This document shows, piece after piece, positions 1-34,697 of a stretch of DNA of 39,213 nucleotides. Each line of letters opens with the position of its first letter. Within the stretch, counting starts at the first letter, position 1. The position numbers and the translations under genes are program-made. The stretch lies in the IMG/VR virus record IMGVR_UViG_3300042898_005059, positions 1 to 39,213 of that record, one strand, 5' to 3'. The notes beneath the pieces are model-generated. The model had not been told where the DNA came from. It made no database searches and worked only from the letters and a program-made list of their open reading frames with translations. Origin of the DNA: a virus.

Positions 1-2263
1 ATCCTGGCATTTCGACAGGAATACTACGACCACCGGCCAATGGTATAACTGCTTCTGTACCATGCAATGTTGTTCTATAACCACTGGTCGGTCCAGACAT
101 TATTCCGCCGTATCTGGCACCTAAAATATCAATAACTTCTTTGCGGCTTACAGTAGCCCGGTTTAGTCCGCCGTACATAGAAGAACCGTTGGGCCCGGGT
201 AATCCTGCAAATTCTTCTGCTAAATTATTAGCAAATTGATTACCAGTAAGATTTCCCCGTTGATAGTCATAAAGACCTCTACGAGTCAATAATGCCAGTG
301 CAGCCTCGTCTTGAGTAGTTGTATTAAAAATATCACCAAGACCGACAACGCCTTGTCCGATCAAATCTTTCAGAGTTCCACGAGTAATTTGGTATTTGCC
401 TGCTGCTGAACTTTGAATACCTTGTTGTAACCTTTGATTTTGCAAAGACAAAATTTCCGAAACAGGCATACTTGACAATCCTGGAATTACTGTGCTAGGC
501 CATACTGCATCTGCATTGTTGTTGCTCTCTGCCCGCCCTATTAGATTTAAAATATCTCTGACATTTGCAGCGCGAGAAGCCGGGAGAGTTGGCTGTCCTG
601 CTTCGACTTCGGGTGCGATACTTGGCAATGTAGCTCTTTCCATAGTCGGCGATCGAAGAACAGGTTGACCACTTTCACGAGCTCTTTGCATTGCCTGTTG
701 TTGTCGTTCTGCCGCTCCTAGTGCTGCGCCCTGTAAAACAGGTAAACCAGCCTGTGATCTTGCTGCTTGTATCTCGGGCACAGTAGCAGTTGCACTGCCC
801 ATGGGTCCCATAGAACCTGCTGCAGGACTACCACGGAACGCACCAGTTCGCTGAATTGCGGGTAATTCTATACCTAATTTCTTTGCAATATAATTAACAG
901 CATTATTGACTGTACTGGCAAAAGCATCAACAGCCACAGCAGCAGATCCTAATGCCTGAAAGGACAGTAGATTAATTTGTCGATTTAAAACTTGTAATTC
1001 TTTGTTAGCACTTACAAAATTATTGGTTAATTTATTTTGCTCGCCTTGCTGTTTTTCTCTAATAGCAGCTAATTGTTTTTCTAAATCTGTTTGGTCTTTT
1101 ATACTGAGATTAGCTAATCTTGTTTGATCGGTGGCTCTTAGATAGACCCCAGAAGCCTCTCCGCCTACTCTGGCAAATTGATCAACTACTATTTCAAAAT
1201 TCTTAGCCGAACCGGACAATCTTCTTACTGCATCTATATCAGTGGTTCTACCTGAGCGCAAATCATCCAATACTCTCTGTGCTTCACCGCCGGTACTTTG
1301 AATTAATTTTTGAGCTTCTGCGGTGCCGGGAAAACCCGACATTAAATCCCTAAAACCCTGCGCTACTTCTGGGCTAACAAGTGATCCTAAAATGTTACTG
1401 GTATTTTGTATTTGTTTGGCAAGTTCTCCTTGCCCGGCTCTTTCCATTTCCCTTATTGATGCACCGAAAATACCTTCTCGTAATTCTGCTTCTCGCTGCT
1501 CTTGCAATTGTTTTCTATTCGCACCAGTGATTTTACCTAATCTATCCATTTCTAAAGCAAGATTTCGTGTACCATCAGTTAGGCTTTGCTGTGTAATAAA
1601 TTCATTTCTACCTAGCAATACCTGCTGTCTGGCATATGCTGCGCCGGTTTCTACTATATCTTCAGTGTTGAGACCTAATTTCCTAAGAGAATCACCTAAT
1701 GTGCTTGCTGGATCGGCTAACTTACCCACTGAACTTAAAAATGTATTTGCACCTTGACTTACGATCCCGCCGAACTGTGCAAAGGTCACGCTATTTTCTA
1801 TAATGGTTTTACGAAAATTCTGTAAACTTTGTCCAGATAGTTGAAATTGCTGACTTAGACCATCTAAATTTTCTGCAGTTAATGCACCAACTTTGCTGAA
1901 ATCAGCAAATATATCACCTACTTCATCTAATTGATCGATGACAAATTTACTAGCTTCCCCTAGCCCATCTGTAATACCTTTTACTATTCCGCCGATGACA
2001 GGAATAGACTGTGCTAGTTTTCCTAAAGTCGAGGTGGTGGCATCTATCACACCATTTAACGAAGAAAATTTTGTATTTCCTCTTCCAACAGTTAGTACAA
2101 AATTTCCAGTTGCTCTAGCTAAGTCGCTTATTGATGAGCTAGCACCTTGGCGAAAGTTTTTAAGGCTATTTGCAGAACTGTCAACATCTTGGCCAAACAG
2201 ACGCATAGTGCGTCTAAGTTCTTCAATCTCACGGTTAAAATCATCCAAATTATCAGCGGCCAT
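1..2263 (-). CDS. Tail tape measure protein with lambda-R-like muramidase domain (partial, C-terminus off the left edge)
   Basis: I translated the reverse complement from ATG at 2263. It stays open for 754 codons to the window edge, so the C-terminus is missing. The N-terminal two thirds is helical and rich in Q, A, R and E, as in tape measures, which set tail length and thread the tube. Residues about 567-700 resemble the lambda R endolysin fold: IGRAESNNN supplies a candidate catalytic Glu, followed by SSAAGKYQI, then TQDEAALALLTRRG, then EEFAGLPG. This would be a peptidoglycan-cleaving domain used at DNA entry. After it comes GGIMSGPTSGYRTTLHGTEA, a motif I recall from many tape measure C-termini. 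The gene diverges from the gp26-like gene, and a late-type box (CATAAATA, 2292-2285) lies 21 bases upstream. I infer the tape measure role from length, composition and motifs. The muramidase match is recalled, not searched. Confidence 0.85.
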   Translation of the reverse strand, partial: MAADNLDDFNREIEELRRTMRLFGQDVDSSANSLKNFRQGASSSISDLARATGNFVLTVGRGNTKFSSLNGVIDATTSTLGKLAQSIPVIGGIVKGITDGLGEASKFVIDQLDEVGDIFADFSKVGALTAENLDGLSQQFQLSGQSLQNFRKTIIENSVTFAQFGGIVSQGANTFLSSVGKLADPASTLGDSLRKLGLNTEDIVETGAAYARQQVLLGRNEFITQQSLTDGTRNLALEMDRLGKITGANRKQLQEQREAELREGIFGASIREMERAGQGELAKQIQNTSNILGSLVSPEVAQGFRDLMSGFPGTAEAQKLIQSTGGEAQRVLDDLRSGRTTDIDAVRRLSGSAKNFEIVVDQFARVGGEASGVYLRATDQTRLANLSIKDQTDLEKQLAAIREKQQGEQNKLTNNFVSANKELQVLNRQINLLSFQALGSAAVAVDAFASTVNNAVNYIAKKLGIELPAIQRTGAFRGSPAAGSMGPMGSATATVPEIQAARSQAGLPVLQGAALGAAERQQQAMQRARESGQPVLRSPTMERATLPSIAPEVEAGQPTLPASRAANVRDILNLIGRAESNNNADAVWPSTVIPGLSSMPVSEILSLQNQRLQQGIQSSAAGKYQITRGTLKDLIGQGVVGLGDIFNTTTQDEAALALLTRRGLYDYQRGNLTGNQFANNLAEEFAGLPGPNGSSMYGGLNRATVSRKEVIDILGARYGGIMSGPTSGYRTTLHGTEAVIPLAGGRSIPVEMPG

Positions 2264-2303: not shown

Positions 2304-3146
2304 ATGCACTTTTCTGATAATCCCTTAAAGAAATATTTTCGTCAACCCAGCATTTACATAAGATTGCCTAGCCTAGGGCGATGGTATGAGCCCAATAGCA
2401 TTGTAATGCCGCCCAATAAGGATTTGGCAGTATTGCCCATGACAGCCAATGACGAAATTACTAGCCGTACACCCGATGCCTTATTCAATGGATCTGCTAT
2501 CGTTGACATTATTGGCAGTTGTGTACCATCTATTAGAAATCCCTGGGCCATACCCAGTGTTGATCTCAATGCCATACTGGGAGGAATACGAATAGCAACA
2601 TACGGTCACAGTATGGGTATTAGCAGTACCTGCCCAAAATGCGGAAACAGTCACGAATTTAATTTGGATCTTCGTACTGTTTTAGACACACTAAAATGTC
2701 CAGACTATGATGAAACTTTAAGTATTGATGACTTAATTATCAGTTTTCAACCTTTAAATTACAAGCAAATCAATGACAGTAACATACTGCAATTTGAAGA
2801 TCAAAAACTCATGCAGCTAGTGCAACAAAGTGATATTAACAATGAAGAAAAATTAAAAACCATCAGTGAAAGCTTTAAGAAAATAACCAAACTTACAATG
2901 AAAGCCATTGCACTATGTGTGCGATCTATTCAAGGGCCCGATTTTACTGTTGATCAATCATCTTACATAGCAGAATATTTGGAAAACTGCGATAAATCAA
3001 AATTCAACCTCATACGAGATCATATTGCAAAATTGAAAACAGCCAGTGACTTTCAGCCCTTACAAATCAAATGTGTTGAGTGTGAACATCAATATCAACA
3101 AGAATTTGTGTTAGATATGGCAAATTTTTTCGCAACCAACTCTTAA
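2304..3146 (+). CDS. 26: gp26-like baseplate hub / tail assembly protein (zero-frame product)
   Basis: The 280-residue product resembles the T4 baseplate protein family (gp26/gp51) in size, position beside the tape measure gene, and domain style. Two Cys pairs, C110-x2-C113 (TCPKCGNSHEF) and C257-x2-C260 (KCVECEHQ), could form a zinc ribbon. The middle is helical and charged. In T4, gp26 and gp51 act in hub assembly. By position next to the tape measure, a tail-assembly-chaperone role like lambda G is equally possible. The ATG at 2304 is chosen because the ATG at 2290 is in another frame and soon hits a stop; no good Shine-Dalgarno is visible. The 3' end carries a slippery heptamer and hairpin (see 3122-3179), so a longer 352-residue frameshift product is likely. 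The gp26 name is by recalled similarity. Confidence 0.7.
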   Translation: MHFSDNPLKKYFRQPSIYIRLPSLGRWYEPNSIVMPPNKDLAVLPMTANDEITSRTPDALFNGSAIVDIIGSCVPSIRNPWAIPSVDLNAILGGIRIATYGHSMGISSTCPKCGNSHEFNLDLRTVLDTLKCPDYDETLSIDDLIISFQPLNYKQINDSNILQFEDQKLMQLVQQSDINNEEKLKTISESFKKITKLTMKAIALCVRSIQGPDFTVDQSSYIAEYLENCDKSKFNLIRDHIAKLKTASDFQPLQIKCVECEHQYQQEFVLDMANFFATNS

Positions 3147-3179
3147 ATCTCAATGCCGAACAGATTTCAAAGTTGGTTG
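3122..3179 (+). promoter_or_regulatory. Candidate -1 programmed ribosomal frameshift signal
   Basis: In the zero frame the bases read A AAT TTT TTC, giving two overlapping X-XXY-YYZ heptamers (AAATTTT 3122-3128, TTTTTTC 3125-3131). Four bases after the first begins a perfect 9-bp stem: CAACCAACT (3133-3141) with AGTTGGTTG (3171-3179). Inside it is a second perfect 6-bp stem, AAATCT (3145-3150) with AGATTT (3162-3167), and an 11-base loop. The zero-frame stop TAA (3144-3146) lies within the structure. A -1 slip enters the frame that ends at 3361. Heptamer, short spacer and hairpin together are the standard layout of such signals. The 4-base spacer is slightly shorter than typical. Confidence 0.75.
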
Positions 3180-3361
3180 ACCGATTCGAAAACGAAGTAA
3201 AAATAATAAAAAAAGAGTTAATTAAGTTTTGCTGGTATATGCGCGGCGGGCTGACTTACGGCGAAGCGTTGAATCTCAGTGCACAAGAAAGAGAGATTAT
3301 TTCTGAATTGATCAGCGAAAACTTAGAGACAACAAAAAAGAGCGGATTGCCTTTCTTTTAA
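3128..3361 (+). CDS. -1 frame extension of the gp26-like protein (77 codons, probably made only as a fusion)
   Basis: After a -1 slip, residues 1-275 of the gp26-like protein continue as FRNQLLNLNAEQISKLVDRF, then a helical, charged segment with the motif WYMRGGLTYGEALNLS and an end of TTKKSGLPFF. The total is 352 residues. The frame has no ATG between 3128 and its stop. The only near start is TTG at 3173, which sits inside the predicted hairpin and lacks a convincing Shine-Dalgarno, so independent translation looks unlikely. The motif WYMRGGLTYGEA looks conserved in style; I cannot assign a function. By analogy with lambda G/GT, the long form could bind tube subunits while the short part holds the tape measure. 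This analogy is inference. The stop overlaps the stop of the opposing gene. Confidence 0.65.
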   Translation, partial: FRNQLLNLNAEQISKLVDRFENEVKIIKKELIKFCWYMRGGLTYGEALNLSAQEREIISELISENLETTKKSGLPFF

Positions 3362-20500: not shown

Positions 20501-20928
20501 AAATGATCAGTGATAACATTGTATTAAACAGTGTTACTTTCAAACCCTTATTTGGCGAAAAAGCTGCCAATGCTTTAAAGGCCACCATTAAAGTAATTAA
20601 GGCCGCTAACACATCGGCCAGTGACAGCGAAATTAAAAATCTTGTTGTACAAAATCTCAATAATTATTTTACCATAGACAAATGGGATTTTGGAGCTACA
20701 TTTTATTTCAGTGAATGTGCTGCTTATGTTCACAGAAATATAGGTGGTTTAGTAAGCAGTGTTGTTATAGTACCATTAAATCCCAACAAGAGTTTTGGTG
20801 ATCTCTACGAAATCAGAAGCGCACCTAATGAAATTTTTGTAAATGCAGCAACAGTAAATAATGTCGAAGTTATTTCAGCCTTGACAAGTACAAATATAAA
20901 AACAGCACCTGGTAGTGGGGTAATTTAA
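17503..20928 (+). CDS. 6: gp6-like baseplate wedge protein (baseplate J family), enlarged
   Basis: A 1141-residue protein against 660 in T4 gp6. The N-terminus has features of gp6/J-type proteins: FVDYLRQYYPETFNDYIESS, then DVIAFMGQAMAFRNDLNTRE, then AERRDSVVRLANLVGYTPKR. The middle (DQITLIFGDGVFSAIPVG, then RETLDEIKQRAPARYYTQNR and VNGEDYNNFP) is the baseplate-J core. The extra length lies in inserted beta-rich segments at about 480-800. gp6 dimers form the inner iris ring joining the six wedges and drive baseplate opening. The gene sits after gp25, and its TAATG end overlaps the giant gene. Confidence 0.88.
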   Translation: MARTTRQTVIFGVEDWKRIYETFREADFQSYDFETLRKSFVDYLRQYYPETFNDYIESSEFIALLDVIAFMGQAMAFRNDLNTRENYIDTAERRDSVVRLANLVGYTPKRNEEAQGFLKVFNVQTTENVIDFNGINLSNITINWNDPTNPNWREQFTAIINAALIDSQKVGRPGNRQTILNVVTDEYSINLVPGFLPIVSYNSTIDGVQMPFEAVSATSVGRDYVYEPSPNINSVFNILYRNDRMGFDSANTGYFFYFKQGVLTNQDFNLPEQISNQTVAINIEGVNNEDRWLFQLDNVGNTTDEWQYVDNVFAGAVEQIDPEQRKLFSVASRVNDQITLIFGDGVFSAIPVGLFRCYVRASNGLRYIINPEEMQSVVIPITYTSRTGQVETITFTCGITQPVSNAQPRETLDEIKQRAPARYYTQNRMVNGEDYNNFPFTLYNSIIKSKAVNRASIGTSRWLDLVDNTGKYSSTNSFGSDGALWEDNALPTFTFTWLNLNDVASVINNQIEPTIAEDEFVQFYYANFSRPSLSALNLTWQQSTTLLNETTGYFKDSNGTPVAVGSFSSTNTKYIVVGSLIKFQAPNGQYFDSENKLQVGTPNQEGDKLVIWASPQSIVGNGTNGGLGNLSDGTGPITLNNFVPTSAIPVEVIPVLVTSLSTAVVNSIIDQITLYRNFGLGYNNLTSTWYVITSSNLAVDAEFSLANAQSTAGTNSDASWLIQFITDGETYTVSTRFLVYSFGSVIQTRFFFETNQNIYDPRTGTTIKDFVKVLRSNSQPDSNQPLTTDYPLRIIGQPVLSDGLVDDFQVTVSFEDSDADGIADNPDFFDEIVNPDDNTVNKTVFFEKTVDFDNLERYLLVAADRVYRDLPTLDSIELVKTEFNPDQIFYAYAQVTLSGSVGAFYRLDFINDQRVITDVSSSWIVKTGRQSLYYQYRHNAPLTSRIDPGTSNIIDLYVVTQQYYIAYQNWIRDTTGTVPEPLQPTINELSLAYQGLDNYKMISDNIVLNSVTFKPLFGEKAANALKATIKVIKAANTSASDSEIKNLVVQNLNNYFTIDKWDFGATFYFSECAAYVHRNIGGLVSSVVIVPLNPNKSFGDLYEIRSAPNEIFVNAATVNNVEVISALTSTNIKTAPGSGVI

Positions 20929-23900
20929 TGTCCTTCAGAACTGTAGATTTTTTACCTGAAATATTTCAAACTCCGATAAATCGGCAGTTTCTTTCTGCTA
21001 CATTAGATCAACTTACGCAAGAACCTGAATTTAAAAGAACACAGGGCTATATAGGTCGTAAAATTGGCCCTGGTGTAAATCCCAATGACAAATATGTCAT
21101 AGAATTAGATAAGATACGCAGTGACTATCAACTTGAACCAGGGGTAGTTTCGTTGCGAGAAGATCGAACCAAAATTAAAGATGTAATCACTTATCCTGGT
21201 ATGGTAGATGCATTGGCTCTGCAAGGTGCCAATACTTCAAGACTTGATAGGTTATGGACCAGCGAATATTATTCCTGGGATCCTTTTGTTGATTTTGACA
21301 AGTTTATCAATTTCAGCCAATACTATTGGTTACCAAATGGTCCAGACGCCGTAGATATCAGTTCATCTGCTATTCCATTAACTGACAGTTTCGATGTAAC
21401 CAGAACTAACAGGGGTTATGAATTTTCGGGTATAGCAGGAAACCGCCCTACAATTTATCTGCTAAGAGGTGGATCTTATACATTCAATGTCAATCAAGAT
21501 CCTCATAAATTTTGGATACAGTTAGAGCCTGGTGTCAATGGTACCCTTAGTGCCACACCTAACATTTCCGGCAGAGATATTTTGGGTGTTGAGGACAACG
21601 GTCAAAGCAATGGCACAGTGACATTCAATGTTCCTCAAGCCGATGCTCAGCAGTTTTATTATGATTTACCTTTGTTGGGTTCCGTTGATTTATTGACTAC
21701 TACACTGACTTATGAAGATATAAACAATGTCTATCTTGATAATTTTTTAGCCGCTTATCCCAGTGGTATTGATGGAATAACTAGTTTAGATCAGAAAACT
21801 ATTATTTTTACAACGGAACAGGGCTGGTTTGAATCTACTAGATTTGATCCCTTACCACAGGATCCAGCATTCAATGGACAAGTTGGCAGTTTTGATACTA
21901 CACTCTATGATCAAGAATTAGAGATACCTTTTGAAGAAAGATATAAGGTCTGGAGAATTGTCTACAATTATGACACAGACAATCAAATTTATCTAACAGT
22001 AGAACCATATATCCCTATTGCAATATTTGATAAAGTTGATATTTTATTCGGCGCCCAATGGAGCAGCACACAATGGTACAAAAACTCAGATGGTTTTATA
22101 GAAAAGATCCCATTACTATCGGCAATCTTTAATACTCTTTACTATCAAGACAGTACCAATCCAAACTTTTTTGGTGTTATACGACTGTTAGAATCCACTG
22201 ATAATGATACTATTTTCATAGATAATATTTTAGGCAAACCAAACTATACCAGTCCTACAGGTGTGGTCTTTACTAACAATTTAAAAGTTGTTTTTCGTGG
22301 GTCAGTTGTGCCTGACAGTTATCAAAATAATGAATACTATGTTTCGGGTGTGGGTACTGCTATCAAGTTGCTGCCTGTTACTGATTATATCACACCCGAA
22401 ACTTATATTGACAGCACCGAGCCCAATCAACCGTTAATACCTGACTATCTATTGATGTCTTTAGATTCACCTAGCCTCAATGCGTGGTCGAGAACCAATA
22501 GATGGTTTCATATAGATGTCATTAACGCTACTGCAGAATATAATAATACTGTTGCTGTATTCGACAATAACTTCAGAGCTAAAAGACCAATTTTAGAATT
22601 TCGCGGTGGTTTACAATTATTCAATAATGGTACCGCAGCAAAACAACCAGTAGATATAGTAGATTTTGTTACCACTGACGCATTCAGTGAAGTTAATGGT
22701 GCAACTAGTTATCAAGTTGACGGATATGAATTTGTCAACGGAACAAGAGTAATATTTGCCATTGATAATGAGTTAGACATTAGAAACAAAATTTATATAG
22801 TTTCTTTTATTGAGCCAACCGGCGATAGTTCTTCTGAGGTTATATTATTAACACCAGCCGAGGATGCTAATGTTCTTGTTAATAATTCAGTGCTAGGCCT
22901 TAACGGACAAACAGAACAGGGCCTAACATATTGGTTTAATGGATTAACTTGGAAATTAGCACAGGAAAAAACACAAGTTAACCAGGCACCACTCTTTGAT
23001 GTTTTTGATCTAAATGGTATCAGCTATAGCGATCAAGACCTATATATCAGCTCTAACTTTTTCGGTAGTAAGGTTTTTAGTTACCAGCCCGGCGAAGGCA
23101 GTAAAGACCCTGTGCTGGGTTTTCCATTAAATTATCTAACATTGGCCAATGTGGGCGACATTGTCTTTGACAATAACTTTTATACGCAGTCGTTTGTTTA
23201 TCTCAAAGACAAATCAAGTGTTACCCAGAATATCAGCAACGGTATATTAAAAGAATACAGCAGCCGTACAGATTTTGTTCCAAGAATTGGTTGGCAAACA
23301 GCAGCCACTCGACTGCAAGTTTATCAACAATTTAGATTTGTCTATGATGGCAGCTCTACTTTGCTGTTAGATATAGCAGTGAAAAACCAAGAAATCATTG
23401 ATGTTCCTGTTGTAAAAATCTATATCGGAGAAGATTTTCAAGTACCGGGTACTTTCAGTTATACTACAACAGAAAATTCAACTACGATTACACTTAACGA
23501 AACTGGTATTCCTATCGGGACTATAATTGAAGTGCAAGCTCTGAGTGATCAAATCAGTGAAGTGGGATTTTACGAAGTACCAAATAATTTAGAAAATAAT
23601 CCATTCAATGAAAATTCGTCGATTTTTACATTAGGTACTGCTAGACAACATTATCAAAGTATCGCCGAAAATCTCTTAGATTTTCAAGGCAGTATAAATG
23701 GTGCTAATAACACCAGAGATTTAGGTAATATCTTACCTTATGGTCTAATAATAAATCAGCAAAGCAGTCCATTATCTTTGGCAGGATATTTTTTAAGAAG
23801 TCAGCAATTTAACATATTTTCTGCTCTTGACTATAACAGTCGTGAATACGAAAAAATCAAAGCACAGATATTAAATTTAGCAGTTACCAATGATTACACC

Positions 23901-26900
23901 AATCTTACAATACCAGAAATTCTCAATGACATTTTAACTGAATTAGGATTTGACAAAACTTCCTCGCAGCCATTCTATTGGTCAGACATGCTGCCATTCA
24001 GTAATGTCTACACAGAAACTGTGTATACTTGGACACCGGTAAGTGTCAATGTCTTTGATACAACGCAGACCTATGATTTTACTTCGGCCAATTACCTAGG
24101 TTTACTAGTTTACTTAAATGGTGTTCAACTACTGAGAGGTAGCCAATATACAGTGGGAATCGACAGCCCCACTATTACTGTAACAGCACCATTGGCAGTA
24201 GGTGATACTATTACTATCAGAGAATATCAAACCACAGCAGGTAGTTTTATACCCAATACTCCTACCAAACTGGGTCTTTATCCTGCCACAGAACCTGAAA
24301 TTTATATTGATGAGACTTATATTGAACCTACATTGGTGATTAGAGGACACGACGGTAGCATCACTGTGGCATTTGAAGATTTTCGTGACGAACTATTGTT
24401 AGAATTTGAAAAGCGAATTTACAATACCTTGAAAGTTGACGGAAACCCTATACCGTTAGTAGCTACAGATGTTATTCCGGGACAATTTAGATCAACTGAT
24501 TACAGTATAGAGGAAATAAACGAAATACTGGCTTCTGACTTTTTCAGTTGGGTAGGGTGGAATAAATTAGATTTCCGTACACAAAATTATATCAGCTCTA
24601 ATAAATTTACTTACAATTACAGTCAGTCTGGCAATAAACTAAACAATACCAGTTTAGATATAGGTGCTTGGCGTGGCATTTACAATTATTTTTACGATAC
24701 AATCTATCCCAATACCAGACCATGGGAAATGTTGGGATTCAGTGTTGAGCCCAGTTGGTGGCAATCACAATATGGTCTACCTCCTTATACCAGTGGTAAC
24801 TTAGTTCTGTGGGACGATTTAGAAGCTGGGTTGGTTCGAGATCCTAACGGCGAATATATCATTGAAAAATATGCCAGACCTGGACTTACTCAAGTTATTC
24901 CAGCAGGAACAGAAGGGCAGCTAGCAAGTCCGTTTGACAGTGTTGTTGGAAGTTACAGTCAAAATTCATTTCGGTTAAACTGGAAGTTTGGTGACGACGG
25001 TCCAGTAGAAAATGCCTGGAGAACTAGCAGTAGCTATCCATTTAGTATAATGCGGTTATTGGCCTTAACTAGACCAGCTGAATTTTTTACCTTATTTGCC
25101 GACAGAGATCTGTATCGCTTCGATAATACTTTTGATCAATACCTGTTAAATGACAGATATCGTTTAGATGCCAATGGGGTGCAAGTCTACGGTAATGGTA
25201 TTAGTAAAGCCAGTTACATTGACTGGATTGTAGATTTCAATAGGCAGTCCGGTCTTGACAGCACAGATATTTTAACTGAAGACCTAGCTTCTTTAGATGT
25301 TAGATTATGCTATAGATTTGGTGCATTCACAGCAAAAAATCTCTTACAGGTCTTTACAGAAAAAAGCAGTCCACAAAGCATTAATAGTGGCTTACTATTA
25401 CCCGATGAAAGTTACAATTTATTTTTATATAAAAATGTTCCATTTAATCAGGCTATTTACAGCAGTGTCATAGTACAAAAAACCAATAATGGTTATAGTG
25501 TCTATGGTTACGGTACATTAAAACCCTACTTTGAAATACTGGCTAGTCAAAATGTAGGAATACCAGTGGCTATCTCAGCAGGTGGCAAAACAGTCAATGT
25601 CAGTGTATCGCATAGTGATACTATCATACAAATTCCCTATGGATTTGAATATACCACAACCAGTGGTGTTGCTGACTTTCTTATAAGTTATGGTGTTAGA
25701 CTGCAGCAATTGGGATTTATCTTCGACGATTATGAAAATGGCTATATTCTAAATTGGCAACAAATGGTCAAAGAGTTTCTCTATTGGGACGCACAAGGTT
25801 GGGGTGTAAACAGCATTATCAATCTCAACCCATTGGCCAATAAGTTAGTATTAGAAACACCATTGGCTATCGTTGATGACATCAGTGTTCAAACACAAGA
25901 AAATCTTGTATTGGATCAAGAGAAGTCTCCATTGACAACAAAAAATCTTGTTGTTGACAGAGAAAATAATCGTTTTAGTTTAGTACCTACAAACAATCAG
26001 ACTATAAATTATATCAGCGTAAATCTTGTCAGTTACGAGAACATTATGGTTCTCGACAATCGCAGTATATTTGCTGACTTAATTTACGATCCAGCAACTG
26101 GCGCAAGACAGGACCGAATCAAGATATCTGCAGTAACTAGTGTCAATTGGAATGGACAGCTGAATGCTCCTGGATTTATACTTAATCAAGACAATATACA
26201 AGATTGGACACCGTTACGCAAATATGCCAAGGGCGAAATCGTCAAATATAAAAGTCTCTATTATAGTGCTATAGACATTATACAACCCAGCGAGACATTT
26301 AATTTCAATCTTTGGAAGCGCAGCGACTATACTGAAATACAAACTGGTTTATTGCCTAACTTGGCGAATAAGAGTAACCAATTAGAAAATAGTTATAATG
26401 TCTACACTGCTAATCTTGAGCGTGATCAAGATTTATTCAGTTATGGTCTAATTGGATTTAGGCCAAGACAATATATGACCGCACTAAATCTAGACGATAT
26501 CAGTCAGGTCAATCTATATAGACAGTTTTTAGGTACCAAGGGCACTGTTCAGGCTGCAGAAATATTTACTTTTGCTGATCTAGGCAAAGGTGTCGCACAA
26601 TTTGACATTTACGAAAATTGGGCTATACAAAAAGCCACTTACGGTGCCAATGCCAATAGAAATTACTATGAAATACAACTTAACGAAGCCGATCTAAATG
26701 CTAATCCCAGTACGGTACAAGTTATTTTCCCTGGACAACAGACTTTAGCCAACCAGTCTGTGCAGGTCGGTGACATTTGGAAATCTAGCACTTTAATATC
26801 TAACCCTGACATATTAACCACAAGATCAAACTTGCCTCCCGATGCTGGTTTACCTACTGCGGGATTCGTCAATTTCAATGATGTTGACATCACAGTGTTT

Positions 26901-29900
26901 AGTCTAGAAGATCCCACAGTACTAAATCCCTATCTCAGCGAGTTAGCAGTCGGACAACTAATTTGGGTAGCCAAGGTCAATAACTATGACTGGGATGTCT
27001 ATAGAGTTTATGGCGTACCGGGCAAAGTCATTGAGGTTCGTGATAATTTAGATGGTACTGCTCAAGTCATATTCGATCAAAATCACAATTTGTTACAAAA
27101 TCAACAAGCTATTATAAAGTTCTTTGATCCTTCCATTGATGGGGTCTATAGAGTCCTGGCTGTACCTGCACCTAATGCTATTGTTATTGCCTACATATTT
27201 GTCAATATAAATCAAATATCTATATTTGGCAATGGCGTAGCATTTACTTTGAAAAGTGTTCGTGTTTCACAGCCCAGCGATATTATTAATACAGATTTTG
27301 CCGATGACTTGAATCTGGGATTTAAAATTTGGGTGTCTAATTCAACCTCACCCTGGGAAGTCTTAGAAAAACAAGAAGTCTTTGACGAAGATCAAACTAT
27401 TCGACCCGATTTGCCAGTACAAGATGGTCAATATGGAATCAGTGCTGATCAATCACAGCAAAACTTATTTACTTTAGTTGGTAGCCCAGGGTATTCAGTT
27501 GAGGGAGCGGTTTATACCTATGTGAAAAATAATTTTGGCAATTACATACCCAATAGTGTGTTAGAATGCTCTGCAGTTGGTACACGGGATTTTGGTAGAA
27601 GCGTCAGCATTGGCAACACAACTTTTAGTGCAGTGGGCGCACCACTTAGTGACATTAACGCAATCACAGATATGGGATTGGTCGCTGTCTTAGAAAAAAT
27701 ATCGGGGTCCAGCACTTTTGAATTTATACAGTTATTGTTACCCGAGCAAGATCTCGGAGACAGTGCAGAATTTGGTCACAGTATAAAAATCAGCCAGGAC
27801 GAAAAGTGGATGTATGTCGGTGCTCCGGGAATTAACGCGGTTTACGCATTTGCACAAATCCCTGTACAAAGACAAACTGTCAGTTACAAAACTGATGGTA
27901 GTACCGATACATATAACTTTGGTGATAGTATTGTTATAGATGAAACTAAACCTAATCAGATAGTCGTTATTTTAAATAATCAATTACTATTGCCGGCAAG
28001 CTATTCTCTAAGTGGCGGCGAAATTACACTGAATAGTACGCCGGCTGATAATTCGGTGTTGTCGATTACAAGAAAAAGTACCTATGAATTCGATGGCAAT
28101 GGTGGCTCTGTATACAATATAGGTGATTATCTCTATACTGCACAAAACATTTATTCATTTAGTGTATTGGTAGATAATGTTCTTCTGAGACCATTCGTTG
28201 ATTATACATTTAATACCACAACCAAAAACATTACCTTCTCGACTGCGAAAACTTCTAGTAACAAAATTATAGTTCGCAGCGGTAGTTACTATCAATATAT
28301 TGAAAAACTAGAACCACCAACACCTGTGGTAGGAGCTAGATTTGGTCATAGTATAGATTGCACATTAGACGGATCTCAAATACTAATAGGTGCAAAAAAT
28401 GATGATGTGGTAGCAGCTACCACTACAAATAATGCCGGTGCTGTTTATATCTTTGAAAGAAATATAGAAAGATTCACTGTTACAGATGTTGATCAAACTG
28501 AATATTCTACCACTGTTAATTTTGTTCAACCATTGACTGTTTCAGTAAATGGACAAAATCTGATCAATACTCAAGACAACATAGGAGGTCAATTTACTGT
28601 TATAGATTCCAATACTGTAGATATTGATTATAATTTCACTGTAGGTGATGTTGTTGAAATTTCGATCAATACATTTAATTTCTTACAAAAATTATCTCAG
28701 ACAACTCCACAGGAATTTGCCGAGTATGGATATTCAGTAAAAATCTGTAGCAATAGTTGCAGTGTGTATGTTGGTGTACCGGGAAATAACAGTGAATTAC
28801 CACAGTCGGGTATGGTAGAAAGAACTGTTAATCAAGCAAGAACTTATGGTACAATATCTTCAACAATAGCTAATCCTTCGCTGATATCTGGTAATAGCCT
28901 AAGAATTAATAACATTGATGTTGTTGTACCTGGGCTATGGGTAGGAGCCAACCCTTACACATTCCGCACTGTGGTATATACTTTATCGTCGGGCATTTAT
29001 AGCATATATCAGGCTCAACAAGATGTACCGGGCGGTACAGATATATCTGATTCTGATTATTGGAAATTAATAGATACAACTGCCTTTGGTTATATTATAA
29101 ACCTTATAGCATTCCGACATCAGGTCAATGCTGTTGTGCCAAATGTTTCTGCAGTATTATCATCTAATATACAAATTACCCCCAGTGGTTTAGATAGAAC
29201 TTATTCGATTGGTACAGCCTATCAGGATGTGGAAAGTTATACACCTTTGGTCTATGTCAACAATGTATTAAAAACTCTTAATGTCGACTATACATTGAAT
29301 CTCACAGCTAAAACTTTGACATTCACAACACCTCCCCCATCTACTGCTGATATAACAGTTGTAACTGGTGTATTGAGTTTCAATACCATAAATGAAACAT
29401 TAAATTATCTCAATAAACTTAATATCAGCTTGGGATTTGTCAATCCCGCGTCGGTATTTGACGCACTGGGTTTAGAAATATTTGTACATACTCAAGATAT
29501 TTACAGTCCACGGCCCTCAATCACTGCGAGATTCGGTGAGTCCATTTCGCTTAGTAATTCAGCCAGAACCTTAATAGTAGGTGCACCCAGAGATAGTGCC
29601 TATATTGTTAATATCTATGACAACGGGTTGACTTATTTTGACAGTAAAAAAACCACATTTTACAGTCAACCCACCGAAAGTGGTGCAGTATACAGTTTTG
29701 ATTTATTGGATACACAATCGCCTAGTGTAACTAATCCTAACCTGTTTGTCTTTGGGCAGATAATTGTACCAAATGTCTTGGAAAGTCTTGATCAATACGG
29801 CAAAGTAGTAAATTATGTTAATAACACATTATTAATAACAAGTCCAGGCAGTGATTTAGGGGACAGCGTTCTAAGTGAATTGAACTATGGTAAATTCATT

Positions 29901-32900
29901 ACATTCCTAAATGAAAATAGTAGTGCCGCTTGGGTTGTAATTAGAAGAGAAACACCAGTAGTAGACATAAGATTAATTAACAGTGTATTTGCTTATGATA
30001 TATTGCAAAGCGCCGAGGCTGAATACTTTGATTTTATTGACCCATTACAAAACAAAATACTAGGTGTGGCCAGGCAAAATATAGATTACATAGGTGCAAT
30101 AGATCCTGCTAGTTATAATGTTGGATCGATTAATAATTATGGAAGAAGGTGGGGTGCTGCTCAAGTTGGCAAAATTTGGTGGGATACTGCTAATACTAGA
30201 TTTGTTAATCCCAATCAAAATAATATTGAATATGCAGCAGCCAGATGGAGTCAATTATTTCCTGGCAGCACTGTTGAAGTCTATCAATGGACGGTAAGTC
30301 CTGTTCCACCTGCACAGTATACCGGTCCGGGCGTAGTTAAATCATTGGCATCATATACTGTAGTAACCGCAGTAGATTCCACAGGAGTATTAAGAACCAA
30401 TTATTTCTTTTGGGTTCGCGGTAATGAGTTTATCAATTATAATTTAGGAAAAACACTCAGCACTACTTCTATAGAAAGGTATATAGAAGATCCCAAGAGT
30501 TCCGGTATACCGTTTGTGGCATTTTTAAGCAGTAGTGCCACAGCGATTTACAACAAATTTGGGATTGTCAACGCTCAAGATACTATTCTGTCAATTGAAT
30601 ATGACAAGGAACTCAATGACAATGCCGTACATGTTGAATACGAGCTTATACCGCAAGATCGTGCAGATGGTTTCTTGAGTACAAATTTATATAGAAAACT
30701 TCAAGACAGTTTTTGTGGGGCCGATACTCAAGGCAACATAGTACCTGATCCTTTATTAAGACCAGCTAACAGATATGGAGTAAATTTCCGCCCCAGACAA
30801 AGTATGTTTATCAATCGCTTTGCAGCATTGCAAAACTACTTAACACGGGTCAATGAAATTTTAGCCCGATATCCAATTAGTGAAAATCGTAATTTCAGTT
30901 TGTTAAATAGCAGTGAACCTATACCATCAAGTAATTCCGGGGCATGGGACGATCGCGTTGCTGATCTAGAAGAACTTAGTTTTCAAAATTTATCAGCAGT
31001 ACCTGTGGGCTACAAATACCTAGTCGAAAGTAACAGCGAACAATTTGGTTTTTGGACAATAAATCAAGTAACTGCAGCAAAAACACTAGAAACTTTACAG
31101 TTGGTAAGAGTGCAGAGTTATGACACACCGAGATATTGGAGTTACATCAATTGGTATCAGCCCGGTTACAATAGTTCGATAACACCAGTTGCGGTGATTA
31201 ATTATGCCAGCGAGCTAGATTCATTGACCGTACCAGTTGGTAGCAGTGTCAAAGTCAGATTCAATGCTAACAATAAATTTGAAATATATCTGAGAACAGA
31301 AACAGGTTGGGTTAGGGTTGGATTACAAGATGGCACAATTGAAATTAGCCGTGCAATTTGGGACTATGCATTCGGTAAATTTGGTTTTGATGTTGAAGTC
31401 TACGATAGCCAATATTTTGATCAAGAACCGGTAACTGAAACTAGAAAAATCATACAGGCCATAAACGAAGAATTATTAATCGATGATTTATTGATTGAAA
31501 GAAATCGCTGTTTGGTATTAATGTTTAACTTTATCTTGTCAGAGTCGTTGGCTCCTCAGTGGCTTTTCAAAACCAGTTTAATTGATGTTGATCATAGAAT
31601 TCGGGAACTATTACCGTTTCAAATCTATAACAGAGATAATCAAGAATTTGTCATTGATTATATTCAAGAAGTTAAACCTTATCATGTGCAAGTTAGAGAA
31701 TTGAATTTGCTATATAATGGCTTTGATCAAGCTGGGTTGGCAGTTAACGATTTTGATTTACCTGCTTACTTTAAGACCAGTTTAGTAACACCAAAATTCG
31801 TCAGCCCGATACTTACCCCCTATACATTAAGTTCAGCAATAGGAACTGGATTAGCTAATCTAGACAGTGATACGCCCCCAGATTCGCAGTTGTGGACTAC
31901 ATTGCCCTATGTCTATTGGTTTGATAACTATAAACTCAGTTTAGAATCTGTGAATATTGTCAATGGTGGCACAGGGTATTTAATCCCACCTGAAGTGTCT
32001 GTAGTAGGGGATTGCATAACTCCTGCTGTGATTACAGCCAATATTAATATCTTAGGGCAAGTCAGCGAAATTGAAATACTAGACCCCGGCAGCGGTTATA
32101 CCAGCACCCCAACCATTGTAGTAACCGGTGTTGGTACAGGTGCAATGTTAACTGCTAACATGGGCAATCAGTTGATAAGACAAATCAAAACTACTATAAA
32201 ATTTGACAGATATCAGCATCAAAGCAATATAACTGATTGGCAGGCCGGTATTACTTATATTACTGGACAAAGAGTAAGATATGCCAACAGGGTTTGGCAA
32301 GCTACAGAAAACAATAGTTCTATGACATTTAATTTAGCTCAATGGACCAGTGTTTCTGCTAATGTTTTAAGTGGGGTAGATAGAACTCGTGGGTACTATG
32401 CGCCCACTGCTGAACAGTTTGGTGTTGATTTGAATTTATTAATGTCTGGAATAAGTTATCCTGGCGTACAAGTCTACGGTTTATTGTTTAACGATAATAT
32501 CACAGAGTTAGACACTGTGTATGAAAGCAGTTTCCTAGACAGTTATCTAGGAACAAGACTCAGTGATATCAATGTGGTAGGTGGAACATTTGTAGACACT
32601 TATAGTAGTCATGCACCCGAAGAGCTAGTTCCTGGCAGTATATTTGATACTTTGGATTTTAGAGTCTTTACAAGACCAGGAGCAGATTGGCAAGGCGATG
32701 GTCACGGTTTTCCTTTGAATTATATAAGATTCACTTATAATTCAGCAACATCAACTGAAGTAAGTTTTGCTAATCTAATCAATGACCCTATAGGAATAAT
32801 TGTATCTAATCAAACACAGCAAAGAGACCTTATATTAGGAGTTCATTACACTATAGATTGGGTAACTCAAACAGTTTCGATTGTGAATAATGTTAGTTTT

Positions 32901-34697
32901 CCTGCTGCCAGTAACGGTGATATAATTACAGTCTCCGTTTATGGTATAGGTGGTGGTAATCAGATCTTTAGACAGAGTTACAACGGTCAGCAAGTAGGCA
33001 ATCAACTAACTATTCCTGTACTTTACGACGAAATTGATGATTTAGTAATTTTTGTCAATGGCGAATTAACAACCGATTTTACTTATTCTGCAGATGTGGT
33101 GGGATTCACTGTGATTAATTTTGCAACAACCTATACTGCAGTTGATTACATTAGTATTACCGCACTTAGTGAAAGCTATTTTGCCGAAGGTATAAGTTGG
33201 TCGACACCGATTACTGAATACTTTACTGCAGATGGCTCAACTTTAAGTTTTATATTATCAGCTGACATGGGTGGCATAAATGCCGGTGTTGCCGTTGTTG
33301 AACGCAATGGTATCAGGGCCAGGCCTCCGGCCGGAGCAAGTTATATTGCCGACGGATCTAGTGCTTTTGCATTGCCTACTAGATTAGGATTTAATCAGAG
33401 CACCATTTCCGACAGTGATGTAGTGGTTTGGCTAAACAATGAATTACAAGTACAAGGGGTTGATTATATTGTAGAACCTTATGTATCTGACGAAGATCTT
33501 AGAGAGGTTATTTTTGCAGTCGAACCCAACGACGGAGATAGTATTTATATTGCAGTATTTACTGATGCTGATTATACATTTTCTGGATTGGGTACCAGTA
33601 CAGTTACTTTAGATTGGAATCCTAGTAGTAGTTTCTTACCTTTAACAGGTGATATCATATCAGTGATATCCTGGAACGACACACAACAACAGAATCTTTC
33701 AACCAAGGTCTATGTTGGACCAGTTACTACAGGTATAACAGTAAATCAACCCTATGATAGTACTCCATTCAGTTATGCCACAATATCGGGTGATCCAGGC
33801 AGTTACGATTATACCGAAGGCATTACACTTGTGGTTAATGATTTATTTTTAGATAAAGTCTATACTAAACCTGAAAGATTATGGGTAACTTTAAATGGCG
33901 ATAGACTTTTTTACGGTGCAGGATTTACTGTCAACGGTCAAGAATTAATTCTAACCTCGGGTGTAATTAGTGTAACTGATGTAGTAGTCATTACCGAAGT
34001 CACCGACTCTGTAACTCCGGATCACATGGCATTTAGAATTTTTCAAGATATGCGCGGATTACAATTAACATACAGAATTACAGAAAATTCAACTACTGAA
34101 TTGGCCTCTGCGGTCCTAGTAGACGATGACGAAATTACAGTTAAAGATGCCAGCAGATTAGAAATACCTAGCCCAACACAAAATCTCTTAGGTGTAGTAA
34201 CCATCAATGGCGAAAGAATTACCTACAGAGAGATTGATTTCAACTCAAATACAATCAGTGGATTAAGAAGGGGTACTGCCGGAACTGCTGTAGCAGCCCA
34301 TGCAGCAGATTCGATAGTGTATGATATGGGTATTGGTAATTTATTAGAAGCACAATATCAAAATAGACTGGTCCAAAGCACTAGTATCGGCGACGGATCT
34401 ACTATTAAATTTACGGCGGATGATATAGATTTAAATTACTATGCAGACAGTTCGGGCTTTATTGAACTAGCAGTCCGTGTATACGTGGGCGGAATTCTAC
34501 AGTCCGGAAATTATTTTATAAGCAATTACAATCCTATTAGCGTAGAATTCGATACTGCACCTGCCGACGGTCTGGAAGTTGTAATTGAAATTTTACAGGG
34601 ATTAAGCTGGTATGAACCCGGCCCCAATACCGCTAGCAATGGGTTGGCATTGCAAGAAACAGATACCACAGCGGCAAGGTTTTTTAGAGGATTCTAA
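20928..34697 (+). CDS. Giant multidomain baseplate-associated structural protein, 4589 aa
   Basis: One uninterrupted frame of 13.8 kb. The start MSFRTVDFLPEIFQTPINRQ and the segment SWDPFVDFDKFINFSQYYWL resemble large proteins that follow gp6 in T4-like marine phages, in the gp7/gp8 wedge position. Residues about 160-260 look cupredoxin-like (TIYLLRGGSYTFNV, then HKFWIQ). About 2185-2980 holds seven FG-GAP-like blades (VGAP or IGAK motifs). About eleven copies of a fibre module (pattern V-x-V-N-G-x-x-L then D-Y-T) lie at roughly 828, 1047, 2347, 2413, 2538, 2775, 3955, 4041, 4166, 4319 and 4516. Three stretches resemble CBM5/12 at about 1759, 2669 and 3768. A G-x-G-Y repeat pair sits near 3676-3750. 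Likely roles are the baseplate periphery and host-surface binding; this is inference. Confidence 0.85.
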   Translation: MSFRTVDFLPEIFQTPINRQFLSATLDQLTQEPEFKRTQGYIGRKIGPGVNPNDKYVIELDKIRSDYQLEPGVVSLREDRTKIKDVITYPGMVDALALQGANTSRLDRLWTSEYYSWDPFVDFDKFINFSQYYWLPNGPDAVDISSSAIPLTDSFDVTRTNRGYEFSGIAGNRPTIYLLRGGSYTFNVNQDPHKFWIQLEPGVNGTLSATPNISGRDILGVEDNGQSNGTVTFNVPQADAQQFYYDLPLLGSVDLLTTTLTYEDINNVYLDNFLAAYPSGIDGITSLDQKTIIFTTEQGWFESTRFDPLPQDPAFNGQVGSFDTTLYDQELEIPFEERYKVWRIVYNYDTDNQIYLTVEPYIPIAIFDKVDILFGAQWSSTQWYKNSDGFIEKIPLLSAIFNTLYYQDSTNPNFFGVIRLLESTDNDTIFIDNILGKPNYTSPTGVVFTNNLKVVFRGSVVPDSYQNNEYYVSGVGTAIKLLPVTDYITPETYIDSTEPNQPLIPDYLLMSLDSPSLNAWSRTNRWFHIDVINATAEYNNTVAVFDNNFRAKRPILEFRGGLQLFNNGTAAKQPVDIVDFVTTDAFSEVNGATSYQVDGYEFVNGTRVIFAIDNELDIRNKIYIVSFIEPTGDSSSEVILLTPAEDANVLVNNSVLGLNGQTEQGLTYWFNGLTWKLAQEKTQVNQAPLFDVFDLNGISYSDQDLYISSNFFGSKVFSYQPGEGSKDPVLGFPLNYLTLANVGDIVFDNNFYTQSFVYLKDKSSVTQNISNGILKEYSSRTDFVPRIGWQTAATRLQVYQQFRFVYDGSSTLLLDIAVKNQEIIDVPVVKIYIGEDFQVPGTFSYTTTENSTTITLNETGIPIGTIIEVQALSDQISEVGFYEVPNNLENNPFNENSSIFTLGTARQHYQSIAENLLDFQGSINGANNTRDLGNILPYGLIINQQSSPLSLAGYFLRSQQFNIFSALDYNSREYEKIKAQILNLAVTNDYTNLTIPEILNDILTELGFDKTSSQPFYWSDMLPFSNVYTETVYTWTPVSVNVFDTTQTYDFTSANYLGLLVYLNGVQLLRGSQYTVGIDSPTITVTAPLAVGDTITIREYQTTAGSFIPNTPTKLGLYPATEPEIYIDETYIEPTLVIRGHDGSITVAFEDFRDELLLEFEKRIYNTLKVDGNPIPLVATDVIPGQFRSTDYSIEEINEILASDFFSWVGWNKLDFRTQNYISSNKFTYNYSQSGNKLNNTSLDIGAWRGIYNYFYDTIYPNTRPWEMLGFSVEPSWWQSQYGLPPYTSGNLVLWDDLEAGLVRDPNGEYIIEKYARPGLTQVIPAGTEGQLASPFDSVVGSYSQNSFRLNWKFGDDGPVENAWRTSSSYPFSIMRLLALTRPAEFFTLFADRDLYRFDNTFDQYLLNDRYRLDANGVQVYGNGISKASYIDWIVDFNRQSGLDSTDILTEDLASLDVRLCYRFGAFTAKNLLQVFTEKSSPQSINSGLLLPDESYNLFLYKNVPFNQAIYSSVIVQKTNNGYSVYGYGTLKPYFEILASQNVGIPVAISAGGKTVNVSVSHSDTIIQIPYGFEYTTTSGVADFLISYGVRLQQLGFIFDDYENGYILNWQQMVKEFLYWDAQGWGVNSIINLNPLANKLVLETPLAIVDDISVQTQENLVLDQEKSPLTTKNLVVDRENNRFSLVPTNNQTINYISVNLVSYENIMVLDNRSIFADLIYDPATGARQDRIKISAVTSVNWNGQLNAPGFILNQDNIQDWTPLRKYAKGEIVKYKSLYYSAIDIIQPSETFNFNLWKRSDYTEIQTGLLPNLANKSNQLENSYNVYTANLERDQDLFSYGLIGFRPRQYMTALNLDDISQVNLYRQFLGTKGTVQAAEIFTFADLGKGVAQFDIYENWAIQKATYGANANRNYYEIQLNEADLNANPSTVQVIFPGQQTLANQSVQVGDIWKSSTLISNPDILTTRSNLPPDAGLPTAGFVNFNDVDITVFSLEDPTVLNPYLSELAVGQLIWVAKVNNYDWDVYRVYGVPGKVIEVRDNLDGTAQVIFDQNHNLLQNQQAIIKFFDPSIDGVYRVLAVPAPNAIVIAYIFVNINQISIFGNGVAFTLKSVRVSQPSDIINTDFADDLNLGFKIWVSNSTSPWEVLEKQEVFDEDQTIRPDLPVQDGQYGISADQSQQNLFTLVGSPGYSVEGAVYTYVKNNFGNYIPNSVLECSAVGTRDFGRSVSIGNTTFSAVGAPLSDINAITDMGLVAVLEKISGSSTFEFIQLLLPEQDLGDSAEFGHSIKISQDEKWMYVGAPGINAVYAFAQIPVQRQTVSYKTDGSTDTYNFGDSIVIDETKPNQIVVILNNQLLLPASYSLSGGEITLNSTPADNSVLSITRKSTYEFDGNGGSVYNIGDYLYTAQNIYSFSVLVDNVLLRPFVDYTFNTTTKNITFSTAKTSSNKIIVRSGSYYQYIEKLEPPTPVVGARFGHSIDCTLDGSQILIGAKNDDVVAATTTNNAGAVYIFERNIERFTVTDVDQTEYSTTVNFVQPLTVSVNGQNLINTQDNIGGQFTVIDSNTVDIDYNFTVGDVVEISINTFNFLQKLSQTTPQEFAEYGYSVKICSNSCSVYVGVPGNNSELPQSGMVERTVNQARTYGTISSTIANPSLISGNSLRINNIDVVVPGLWVGANPYTFRTVVYTLSSGIYSIYQAQQDVPGGTDISDSDYWKLIDTTAFGYIINLIAFRHQVNAVVPNVSAVLSSNIQITPSGLDRTYSIGTAYQDVESYTPLVYVNNVLKTLNVDYTLNLTAKTLTFTTPPPSTADITVVTGVLSFNTINETLNYLNKLNISLGFVNPASVFDALGLEIFVHTQDIYSPRPSITARFGESISLSNSARTLIVGAPRDSAYIVNIYDNGLTYFDSKKTTFYSQPTESGAVYSFDLLDTQSPSVTNPNLFVFGQIIVPNVLESLDQYGKVVNYVNNTLLITSPGSDLGDSVLSELNYGKFITFLNENSSAAWVVIRRETPVVDIRLINSVFAYDILQSAEAEYFDFIDPLQNKILGVARQNIDYIGAIDPASYNVGSINNYGRRWGAAQVGKIWWDTANTRFVNPNQNNIEYAAARWSQLFPGSTVEVYQWTVSPVPPAQYTGPGVVKSLASYTVVTAVDSTGVLRTNYFFWVRGNEFINYNLGKTLSTTSIERYIEDPKSSGIPFVAFLSSSATAIYNKFGIVNAQDTILSIEYDKELNDNAVHVEYELIPQDRADGFLSTNLYRKLQDSFCGADTQGNIVPDPLLRPANRYGVNFRPRQSMFINRFAALQNYLTRVNEILARYPISENRNFSLLNSSEPIPSSNSGAWDDRVADLEELSFQNLSAVPVGYKYLVESNSEQFGFWTINQVTAAKTLETLQLVRVQSYDTPRYWSYINWYQPGYNSSITPVAVINYASELDSLTVPVGSSVKVRFNANNKFEIYLRTETGWVRVGLQDGTIEISRAIWDYAFGKFGFDVEVYDSQYFDQEPVTETRKIIQAINEELLIDDLLIERNRCLVLMFNFILSESLAPQWLFKTSLIDVDHRIRELLPFQIYNRDNQEFVIDYIQEVKPYHVQVRELNLLYNGFDQAGLAVNDFDLPAYFKTSLVTPKFVSPILTPYTLSSAIGTGLANLDSDTPPDSQLWTTLPYVYWFDNYKLSLESVNIVNGGTGYLIPPEVSVVGDCITPAVITANINILGQVSEIEILDPGSGYTSTPTIVVTGVGTGAMLTANMGNQLIRQIKTTIKFDRYQHQSNITDWQAGITYITGQRVRYANRVWQATENNSSMTFNLAQWTSVSANVLSGVDRTRGYYAPTAEQFGVDLNLLMSGISYPGVQVYGLLFNDNITELDTVYESSFLDSYLGTRLSDINVVGGTFVDTYSSHAPEELVPGSIFDTLDFRVFTRPGADWQGDGHGFPLNYIRFTYNSATSTEVSFANLINDPIGIIVSNQTQQRDLILGVHYTIDWVTQTVSIVNNVSFPAASNGDIITVSVYGIGGGNQIFRQSYNGQQVGNQLTIPVLYDEIDDLVIFVNGELTTDFTYSADVVGFTVINFATTYTAVDYISITALSESYFAEGISWSTPITEYFTADGSTLSFILSADMGGINAGVAVVERNGIRARPPAGASYIADGSSAFALPTRLGFNQSTISDSDVVVWLNNELQVQGVDYIVEPYVSDEDLREVIFAVEPNDGDSIYIAVFTDADYTFSGLGTSTVTLDWNPSSSFLPLTGDIISVISWNDTQQQNLSTKVYVGPVTTGITVNQPYDSTPFSYATISGDPGSYDYTEGITLVVNDLFLDKVYTKPERLWVTLNGDRLFYGAGFTVNGQELILTSGVISVTDVVVITEVTDSVTPDHMAFRIFQDMRGLQLTYRITENSTTELASAVLVDDDEITVKDASRLEIPSPTQNLLGVVTINGERITYREIDFNSNTISGLRRGTAGTAVAAHAADSIVYDMGIGNLLEAQYQNRLVQSTSIGDGSTIKFTADDIDLNYYADSSGFIELAVRVYVGGILQSGNYFISNYNPISVEFDTAPADGLEVVIEILQGLSWYEPGPNTASNGLALQETDTTAARFFRGF

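What the first reader, a model, noticed from the sequence alone, without database searches (positions are those of the whole stretch)
3122..3361. Programmed -1 frameshift in a gp26-like gene next to the tape measure
Seen: overlapping slippery heptamers (A AAT TTT and T TTT TTC) in the correct zero frame; 4 bases later a perfect 9-bp stem (3133-3141 with 3171-3179) containing a second perfect 6-bp stem; the zero-frame stop inside the hairpin; and a -1 frame open for 77 codons with no ATG of its own. Known: long-tailed phages such as lambda make tail assembly chaperones G and G-T by -1 frameshift just before the tape measure gene. I know of no described frameshift in the T4 gp26/gp51 family. Inference: this phage uses the lambda-like trick in a T4-type module, with the tape measure on the opposite strand.
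Basis: partly seen in the sequence, partly recalled or inferred. Interest (0 to 1): 0.88.

Follow-up and report, generated by a model that had tools for sequence, protein, structure and literature searches.

The report
Frameshifted tail chaperone in T4-type phage
A giant T4-type phage very probably makes a short and a long version of one tail-assembly helper protein by having some ribosomes slip back one base at a fixed spot (TTTTTTC), a trick known from phage lambda that these data show is nearly universal in this branch of the T4 superfamily and has only partly been described before.

Summary
The zero-frame gene (2304-3146, Pfam T4_baseplate) ends ...GCA AAT TTT TTC GCA ACC AAC TCT TAA, followed by a perfect 9-bp plus 6-bp hairpin and a 79-codon open -1 frame. 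Homologues decide it. All 97 loci whose 3' end is present (53 non-redundant, mostly 25-73% identical to the window) carry in-frame NNT TTT TTC/T near the stop, and a 72-81-codon -1 extension with coding-type conservation that begins upstream of any start codon. Codons and residues at the junction are constrained in both frames (P about 1e-18 for each of two tests). T TTT TTC, not A AAT TTT, is the conserved site. A stem starting about 6-7 nt downstream is common and covaries in a subset, but is not universal; the window's own stem is shared only with its closest relatives. Cyanophages, HTVC008M, Cr30, phiM12, phiW-14 and KVP40 share the arrangement. T4 instead has two paralogous genes: gp26 (short) and gp51 (long, extension fused in frame). 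Best explanation: a lambda G/GT-type tail assembly chaperone made by -1 frameshifting. The class is not new: Vladimirov et al. 2022 identified T4-like chaperone genes, and papers citing it mention poly-T slippery sites and T4's two-gene solution.

The parts
2304..3146 (+). zero-frame gene, 280 aa: short chaperone form (TAC-N; gp26/gp51-type, PF12322)
   Evidence: PF12322 E=3e-13, phrog_150 baseplate hub E=2e-14; AlphaFold model pLDDT 88 matches T4-like baseplate hub assembly proteins in BFVD, E to 4e-25
3125..3131 (+). slippery heptamer T TTT TTC, the conserved shift site
   Evidence: in-frame NNT TTT TTC/T in 97/97 loci with 3' end, 53/53 non-redundant; also P-SSM2, S-PM2, HTVC008M, Cr30, phiM12, phiW-14, KVP40
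3122..3128 (+). overlapping heptamer A AAT TTT; gives the same fusion protein; present in only part of the relatives
3144..3146 (+). zero-frame stop TAA
3131..3361 (+). -1 frame extension read after the shift (76 residues after FF; fusion of 352 aa); C-terminal domain of the long chaperone form (TAC-NC)
   Evidence: open in all homologues, substitutions concentrated at -1-frame third positions; AlphaFold pLDDT 90.6, helical; tblastn to Atu_ph07 and Phosso
3133..3141 (+). 5' arm of outer stem (CAACCAACT)
   Evidence: p=0.01 versus shuffles
3171..3179 (+). 3' arm of outer stem (AGTTGGTTG)
   Evidence: also in L014 and L021, 8 bp
3145..3150 (+). 5' arm of inner stem (AAATCT)
   Evidence: MFE structure
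3162..3167 (+). 3' arm of inner stem (AGATTT)
2..2263 (-). tape-measure-like gene, divergently transcribed, start codon 40 bp from that of the chaperone gene, runs off the window
   Evidence: 754 aa, C-terminal TLHGTEAVIPLAGGRSIPVEMPG and a lysozyme-like stretch; only weak family hits; gene in the same place annotated 'putative tape measure protein' in Erwinia phage pEa_SNUABM_47

Best explanation
The gene makes two proteins from one message. Most ribosomes stop at 3146 and give the 280-aa short form. A minority slip back one base on T TTT TTC (3125-3131), helped by the downstream hairpin, and make a 352-aa form with a helical C-terminal domain. By analogy with lambda gpG/gpGT, the short form would coat the neighbouring tape measure protein and the rarer long form would recruit tail tube subunits, so the shift fixes the ratio of a transient tail assembly chaperone pair. 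Shown: conserved shift site, protein-coding selection on the -1 frame across the junction, family membership, independent folding of the extension (prediction). Inferred: that slippage occurs and how often, that the hairpin stimulates it, and what the two proteins bind.
For: 53/53 non-redundant homologues (97/97 loci) keep in-frame NNT TTT TTY although the amino acid before FF varies (N, H, D, S, R, G, L); log10 P = -18 given codon usage. The zero-frame codon after the heptamer starts with G in 47/53 (background 31%, P=4e-18), which makes Arg in the -1 frame (FFR): dual coding across the shift site. The -1 frame stays open for 72-81 codons in all, with substitutions at its third positions (window vs L021: 9/4/28 at positions 1/2/3). 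As a rule there is no start codon with a Shine-Dalgarno upstream of the conserved part. Downstream RNA is more stable than control segments of the same genes (75 nt: -15.4 vs -10.4 kcal/mol, p=6e-8; stems at +6/+7), with compensatory changes in a seven-sequence subset (5 of 10 pairs, 0/500 shuffles). The same layout occurs in cyanophages, pelagiphage and KVP40. T4 gp51 is the domain plus the extension fused in frame, and gp26 the domain alone. In PA5oct two neighbouring proteins carry an ESI-MS/MS note and this one does not, as expected of a chaperone absent from the virion.
Against: No measurement of frameshifting or of either protein. The hairpin is individually significant in only 22/53, and in the window it starts 1 nt after the heptamer, closer than the usual 5-9 nt (own knowledge). 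Vi01 lacks a canonical heptamer. The jumbo and cyanophage/T4 extensions match each other only weakly (hhalign E=2e-4, probability 47%). No solved tail chaperone structure matched the zero-frame model. The tape measure call for the minus-strand gene rests on motifs and position.
Confidence: 0.9

Rival explanations
1. The extension is a separate small gene translated from its own start, by coupling at the stop, as database annotation ('gp51', 'baseplate hub assembly catalyst') implies.
For: Annotated so in many cyanophages and in Phosso, 121Q and pEa_SNUABM_47; some homologues have an ATG a few codons into the -1 frame.
Against: Many homologues have no start in the first 25 codons; -1-frame conservation (FFR..LL) begins at the heptamer, upstream of possible starts; coupling would not require TTT TTY; T4 gp51 has the same domain fused in frame.
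Confidence: 0.05
2. Polymerase slippage on the T run makes mRNAs with an altered frame (transcriptional slippage) instead of ribosomal frameshifting.
For: The run is 6-7 T; slippage on homopolymers is known in bacteria (own knowledge).
Against: Slippage usually needs longer runs (about 8-9 or more; own knowledge); the exact phase NNT TTT TTY and the downstream hairpins point to tandem tRNA slippage.
Confidence: 0.03
3. The frames are split by a sequencing error or a decaying gene.
For: None beyond the split itself.
Against: The same split in 97 loci including cultured phages, with coding-type substitutions on both sides.
Confidence: 0.005

Closest known systems
Tail assembly chaperones of T4-like phages (T4 gp26/gp51; Vladimirov, Gautam, Davidson 2022, Virology 566:9-15, pmid 34826709, seen only through citing papers)
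   Same: Same gene family (PF12322; that T4 gp26/gp51 are the genes named there is recalled, not read); short and long forms; poly-T slippery sites reported for TAC-N genes of T4-like phages (PMC12846349)
   Different: T4 itself uses two separate genes. Here one gene, with T TTT TTC, in a jumbo-type lineage and with the tape-measure-like gene on the opposite strand. Whether that paper covers this lineage could not be checked
Lambda gpG / gpGT
   Same: -1 shift at the end of a chaperone gene, extra C-terminal domain, next to the tape measure
   Different: Works alike; no common descent tested or shown. Heptamer T TTT TTC not G GGA AAG; the tape measure is divergent, not downstream; ratio unknown
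Pakpunavirus (phage Adele) / Andersonviridae chaperone frameshift (PMC12846349, 2025)
   Same: Conserved GTTTTT-type site, open -1 frame in every genome
   Different: Different phage group and gene order (tape measure downstream)

Membership tests
T4 gp26/gp51 family (PF12322) | Profile match above the curated cut-off | tested here: met
   50.4 bits against a cut-off of 24.5
T4 gp26/gp51 family (PF12322) | Fold shared with T4-type hub assembly proteins | tested here: met
   BFVD match to a T4-like baseplate hub assembly protein, E 4e-25, TM 0.89
Programmed -1 frameshift site | X XXY YYZ heptamer in phase, conserved | tested here: met
   T TTT TTC/T in 53/53
Programmed -1 frameshift site | -1 ORF under coding selection across the junction | tested here: met
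Programmed -1 frameshift site | Downstream stimulatory structure | tested here: inconclusive
   significant as a group and covarying in a subset, not universal
Programmed -1 frameshift site | Measured frameshift product | not testable with these tools
   needs a reporter or mass spectrometry
Tail assembly chaperone (G/GT type) | Short and long forms sharing the N-terminal domain | tested here: inconclusive
   encoded so; proteins not observed
Tail assembly chaperone (G/GT type) | Adjacent to the tape measure gene | tested here: inconclusive
   divergent tape-measure-like gene 40 bp away, identified by motif and by annotation in one relative
Tail assembly chaperone (G/GT type) | Binds tape measure and tail tube protein, absent from the virion | not testable with these tools
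   only indirect: no MS note for the PA5oct homologue

The most novel reading that the evidence does not exclude
A -1 frameshift at T TTT TTY is the ancestral way in which the T4 superfamily makes its tail chaperone pair, retained in jumbo phages, cyanophages, pelagiphages and KVP40, with a rapidly turning-over stimulatory hairpin; T4 lost the slippery site after duplicating the gene into gp26 (short) and gp51 (long). This would correct the review statement that G/GT frameshifting is conserved 'except T4' and the annotation of 'gp51' in many cyanophage records.
Probability: 0.6. Interest if true: 0.55.

Novelty: new member of a known kind. Interest (0 to 1): 0.42.

Why it matters
It brings a large set of T4-type phages, including jumbo phages, into the rule that long-tailed phages make their tail chaperones in two lengths. 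It suggests how the same two-protein outcome is reached by frameshifting in many lineages and by gene duplication in T4. It also corrects gene models: the extension is missing, or annotated as a separate gene, in the phage records examined here.

Tried and rejected
A AAT TTT as the main shift site: present in only part of the relatives, whereas T TTT TTC/T is in all. The window's exact hairpin as a conserved element: only L013 (identical protein), L014 and L021 share it; L015 has no such stem. Pfam and PHROG hits for the extension alone: none significant. Solved structures by sequence or fold: nothing useful. Fold search of the extension: no match below E=0.001. The full text of Vladimirov 2022 is not held.

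Full report
What is there. The window is an IMG/VR virus contig with T4-type late genes (sigma factor, gp46/47-like SbcCD, baseplate wedge and hub genes). The gene at 2304-3146 is a PF12322 T4_baseplate protein. Its last codons are GCA AAT TTT TTC GCA ACC AAC TCT TAA. Slippage on either heptamer yields the same fusion protein, 276 residues to FF plus 76 in the -1 frame.

Homologues decide the question. tblastn of the extension found Atu_ph07, Phosso and, weakly, SCTP-2. tblastn of the gene found 97 phage records. Scans of IMG/VR gave 91 loci; together with the window and nine annotated phages, 97 loci have the 3' end (a few are the same phage held in two collections). Every one has an in-frame T TTT TTC or T TTT TTT close to the zero-frame stop and a -1 extension of 72-81 codons starting FF. 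The scan patterns did not include the heptamer, so this is not built in by the search. Among 53 non-redundant members the codon pattern NNT TTT TTY has log10 P = -18 given the amino acids and codon usage. The next zero-frame codon begins with G in 47 of 53 (background 31%), which encodes Arg in the -1 frame. These two P values treat the 53 members as independent, which related sequences are not, so they overstate the strength; the unbroken pattern at 25-35% protein identity is the firmer argument. In close pairs, substitutions in the extension fall mostly on -1-frame third positions. This is what translation through the junction predicts, and a separate downstream start does not explain it.

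RNA structure. Downstream of the heptamer the RNA is more stable than control segments (p = 6e-8 at 75 nt), stems most often start at +6/+7, and 22 of 53 members have a stem with shuffle p <= 0.05. In a subset chosen because a stem with a span of 68-74 nt exists, 5 of 10 pairs show compensatory change and the score is reached in 0 of 500 shuffles; that selection leans towards the structure. The window's own stem (p=0.01) starts at +2 and is shared only by L013, L014 and L021. I conclude that a hairpin is a common helper, not an obligatory or positionally conserved one.

Wider family. Searching 11 T4-related records with PF12322 and reading the junctions shows the same site in P-SSM2, S-PM2, HTVC008M, Cr30, phiM12, phiW-14 and KVP40. 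The S-PM2 extension is found in 590 phage records, where it is often annotated as 'gp51' or 'baseplate hub assembly catalyst'. T4 has two PF12322 proteins. gp26 is the domain alone, with no heptamer. gp51 is the domain plus a C-terminal part matching the cyanophage/KVP40 extension profile, built without T4, at residues 200-247 (19.5 bits). Vi01 lacks a canonical heptamer, and Campylobacter phage NCTC12673 has two copies. That T4 replaced frameshifting by duplication is an inference consistent with these data; the match between jumbo-type and cyanophage-type extensions is weak.

Function. The zero-frame model (pLDDT 88) matches T4-type hub assembly proteins and the extension is predicted to fold on its own as a helical domain. 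The divergent neighbour is tape-measure-like by motif, and the gene in the same place in pEa_SNUABM_47 is annotated as tape measure. T4 gp26 and gp51 are listed as hub assembly chaperones (PMC3004832). The most likely role is that of lambda gpG/gpGT.

Literature. Atkins et al. 2016 state that G-T frameshifting is widely conserved 'except T4' (PMC5009743). Vladimirov et al. 2022 identified T4-like chaperone genes. PMC10885494 and PMC12846349 report from it that some T4-like phages use short and long genes, and that poly-T slippery sites occur in TAC-N genes of T4-like phages. The paper itself is not held, so what it covers is second-hand here.

Noticed in passing
window 20928-34697 (+): A single open reading frame of 4589 aa with FG-GAP repeat and weak carbohydrate-binding-module (CBM_5_12, below cut-off) matches: a giant, probably host-contact, virion protein.
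   Followed up: no
window 2-2263 (-): The tape-measure-like gene carries a lysozyme-like stretch (IGRAESNNNAD...AAGKYQITRGTL) in its C-terminal part, by eye only.
   Followed up: partly
phage records, e.g. S-PM2 LN828717, S-ShM2 GU071096: 'gp51 / baseplate hub assembly catalyst' in many cyanophage records is the -1 frameshift extension of gp26, not an independent relative of full-length T4 gp51.
   Followed up: partly
L119 (Salmonella phage Vi01): A PF12322 gene with an open frame downstream but no canonical -1 heptamer (GAA ATT TTC ATT TAA); how a long form would be made is unclear.
   Followed up: no
L123, L126, L127 (Campylobacter phage NCTC12673): A second PF12322-like stretch downstream of the first, reminiscent of the T4 gp26/gp51 pair, with a stop between its pieces.
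   Followed up: no
BFVD fold matches: The zero-frame fold is also found inside much longer uncharacterised proteins (384-686 aa) of other large myoviruses such as phiRSL1, phiEaH2 and RSF1, which may hold unrecognised tail chaperones.
   Followed up: no
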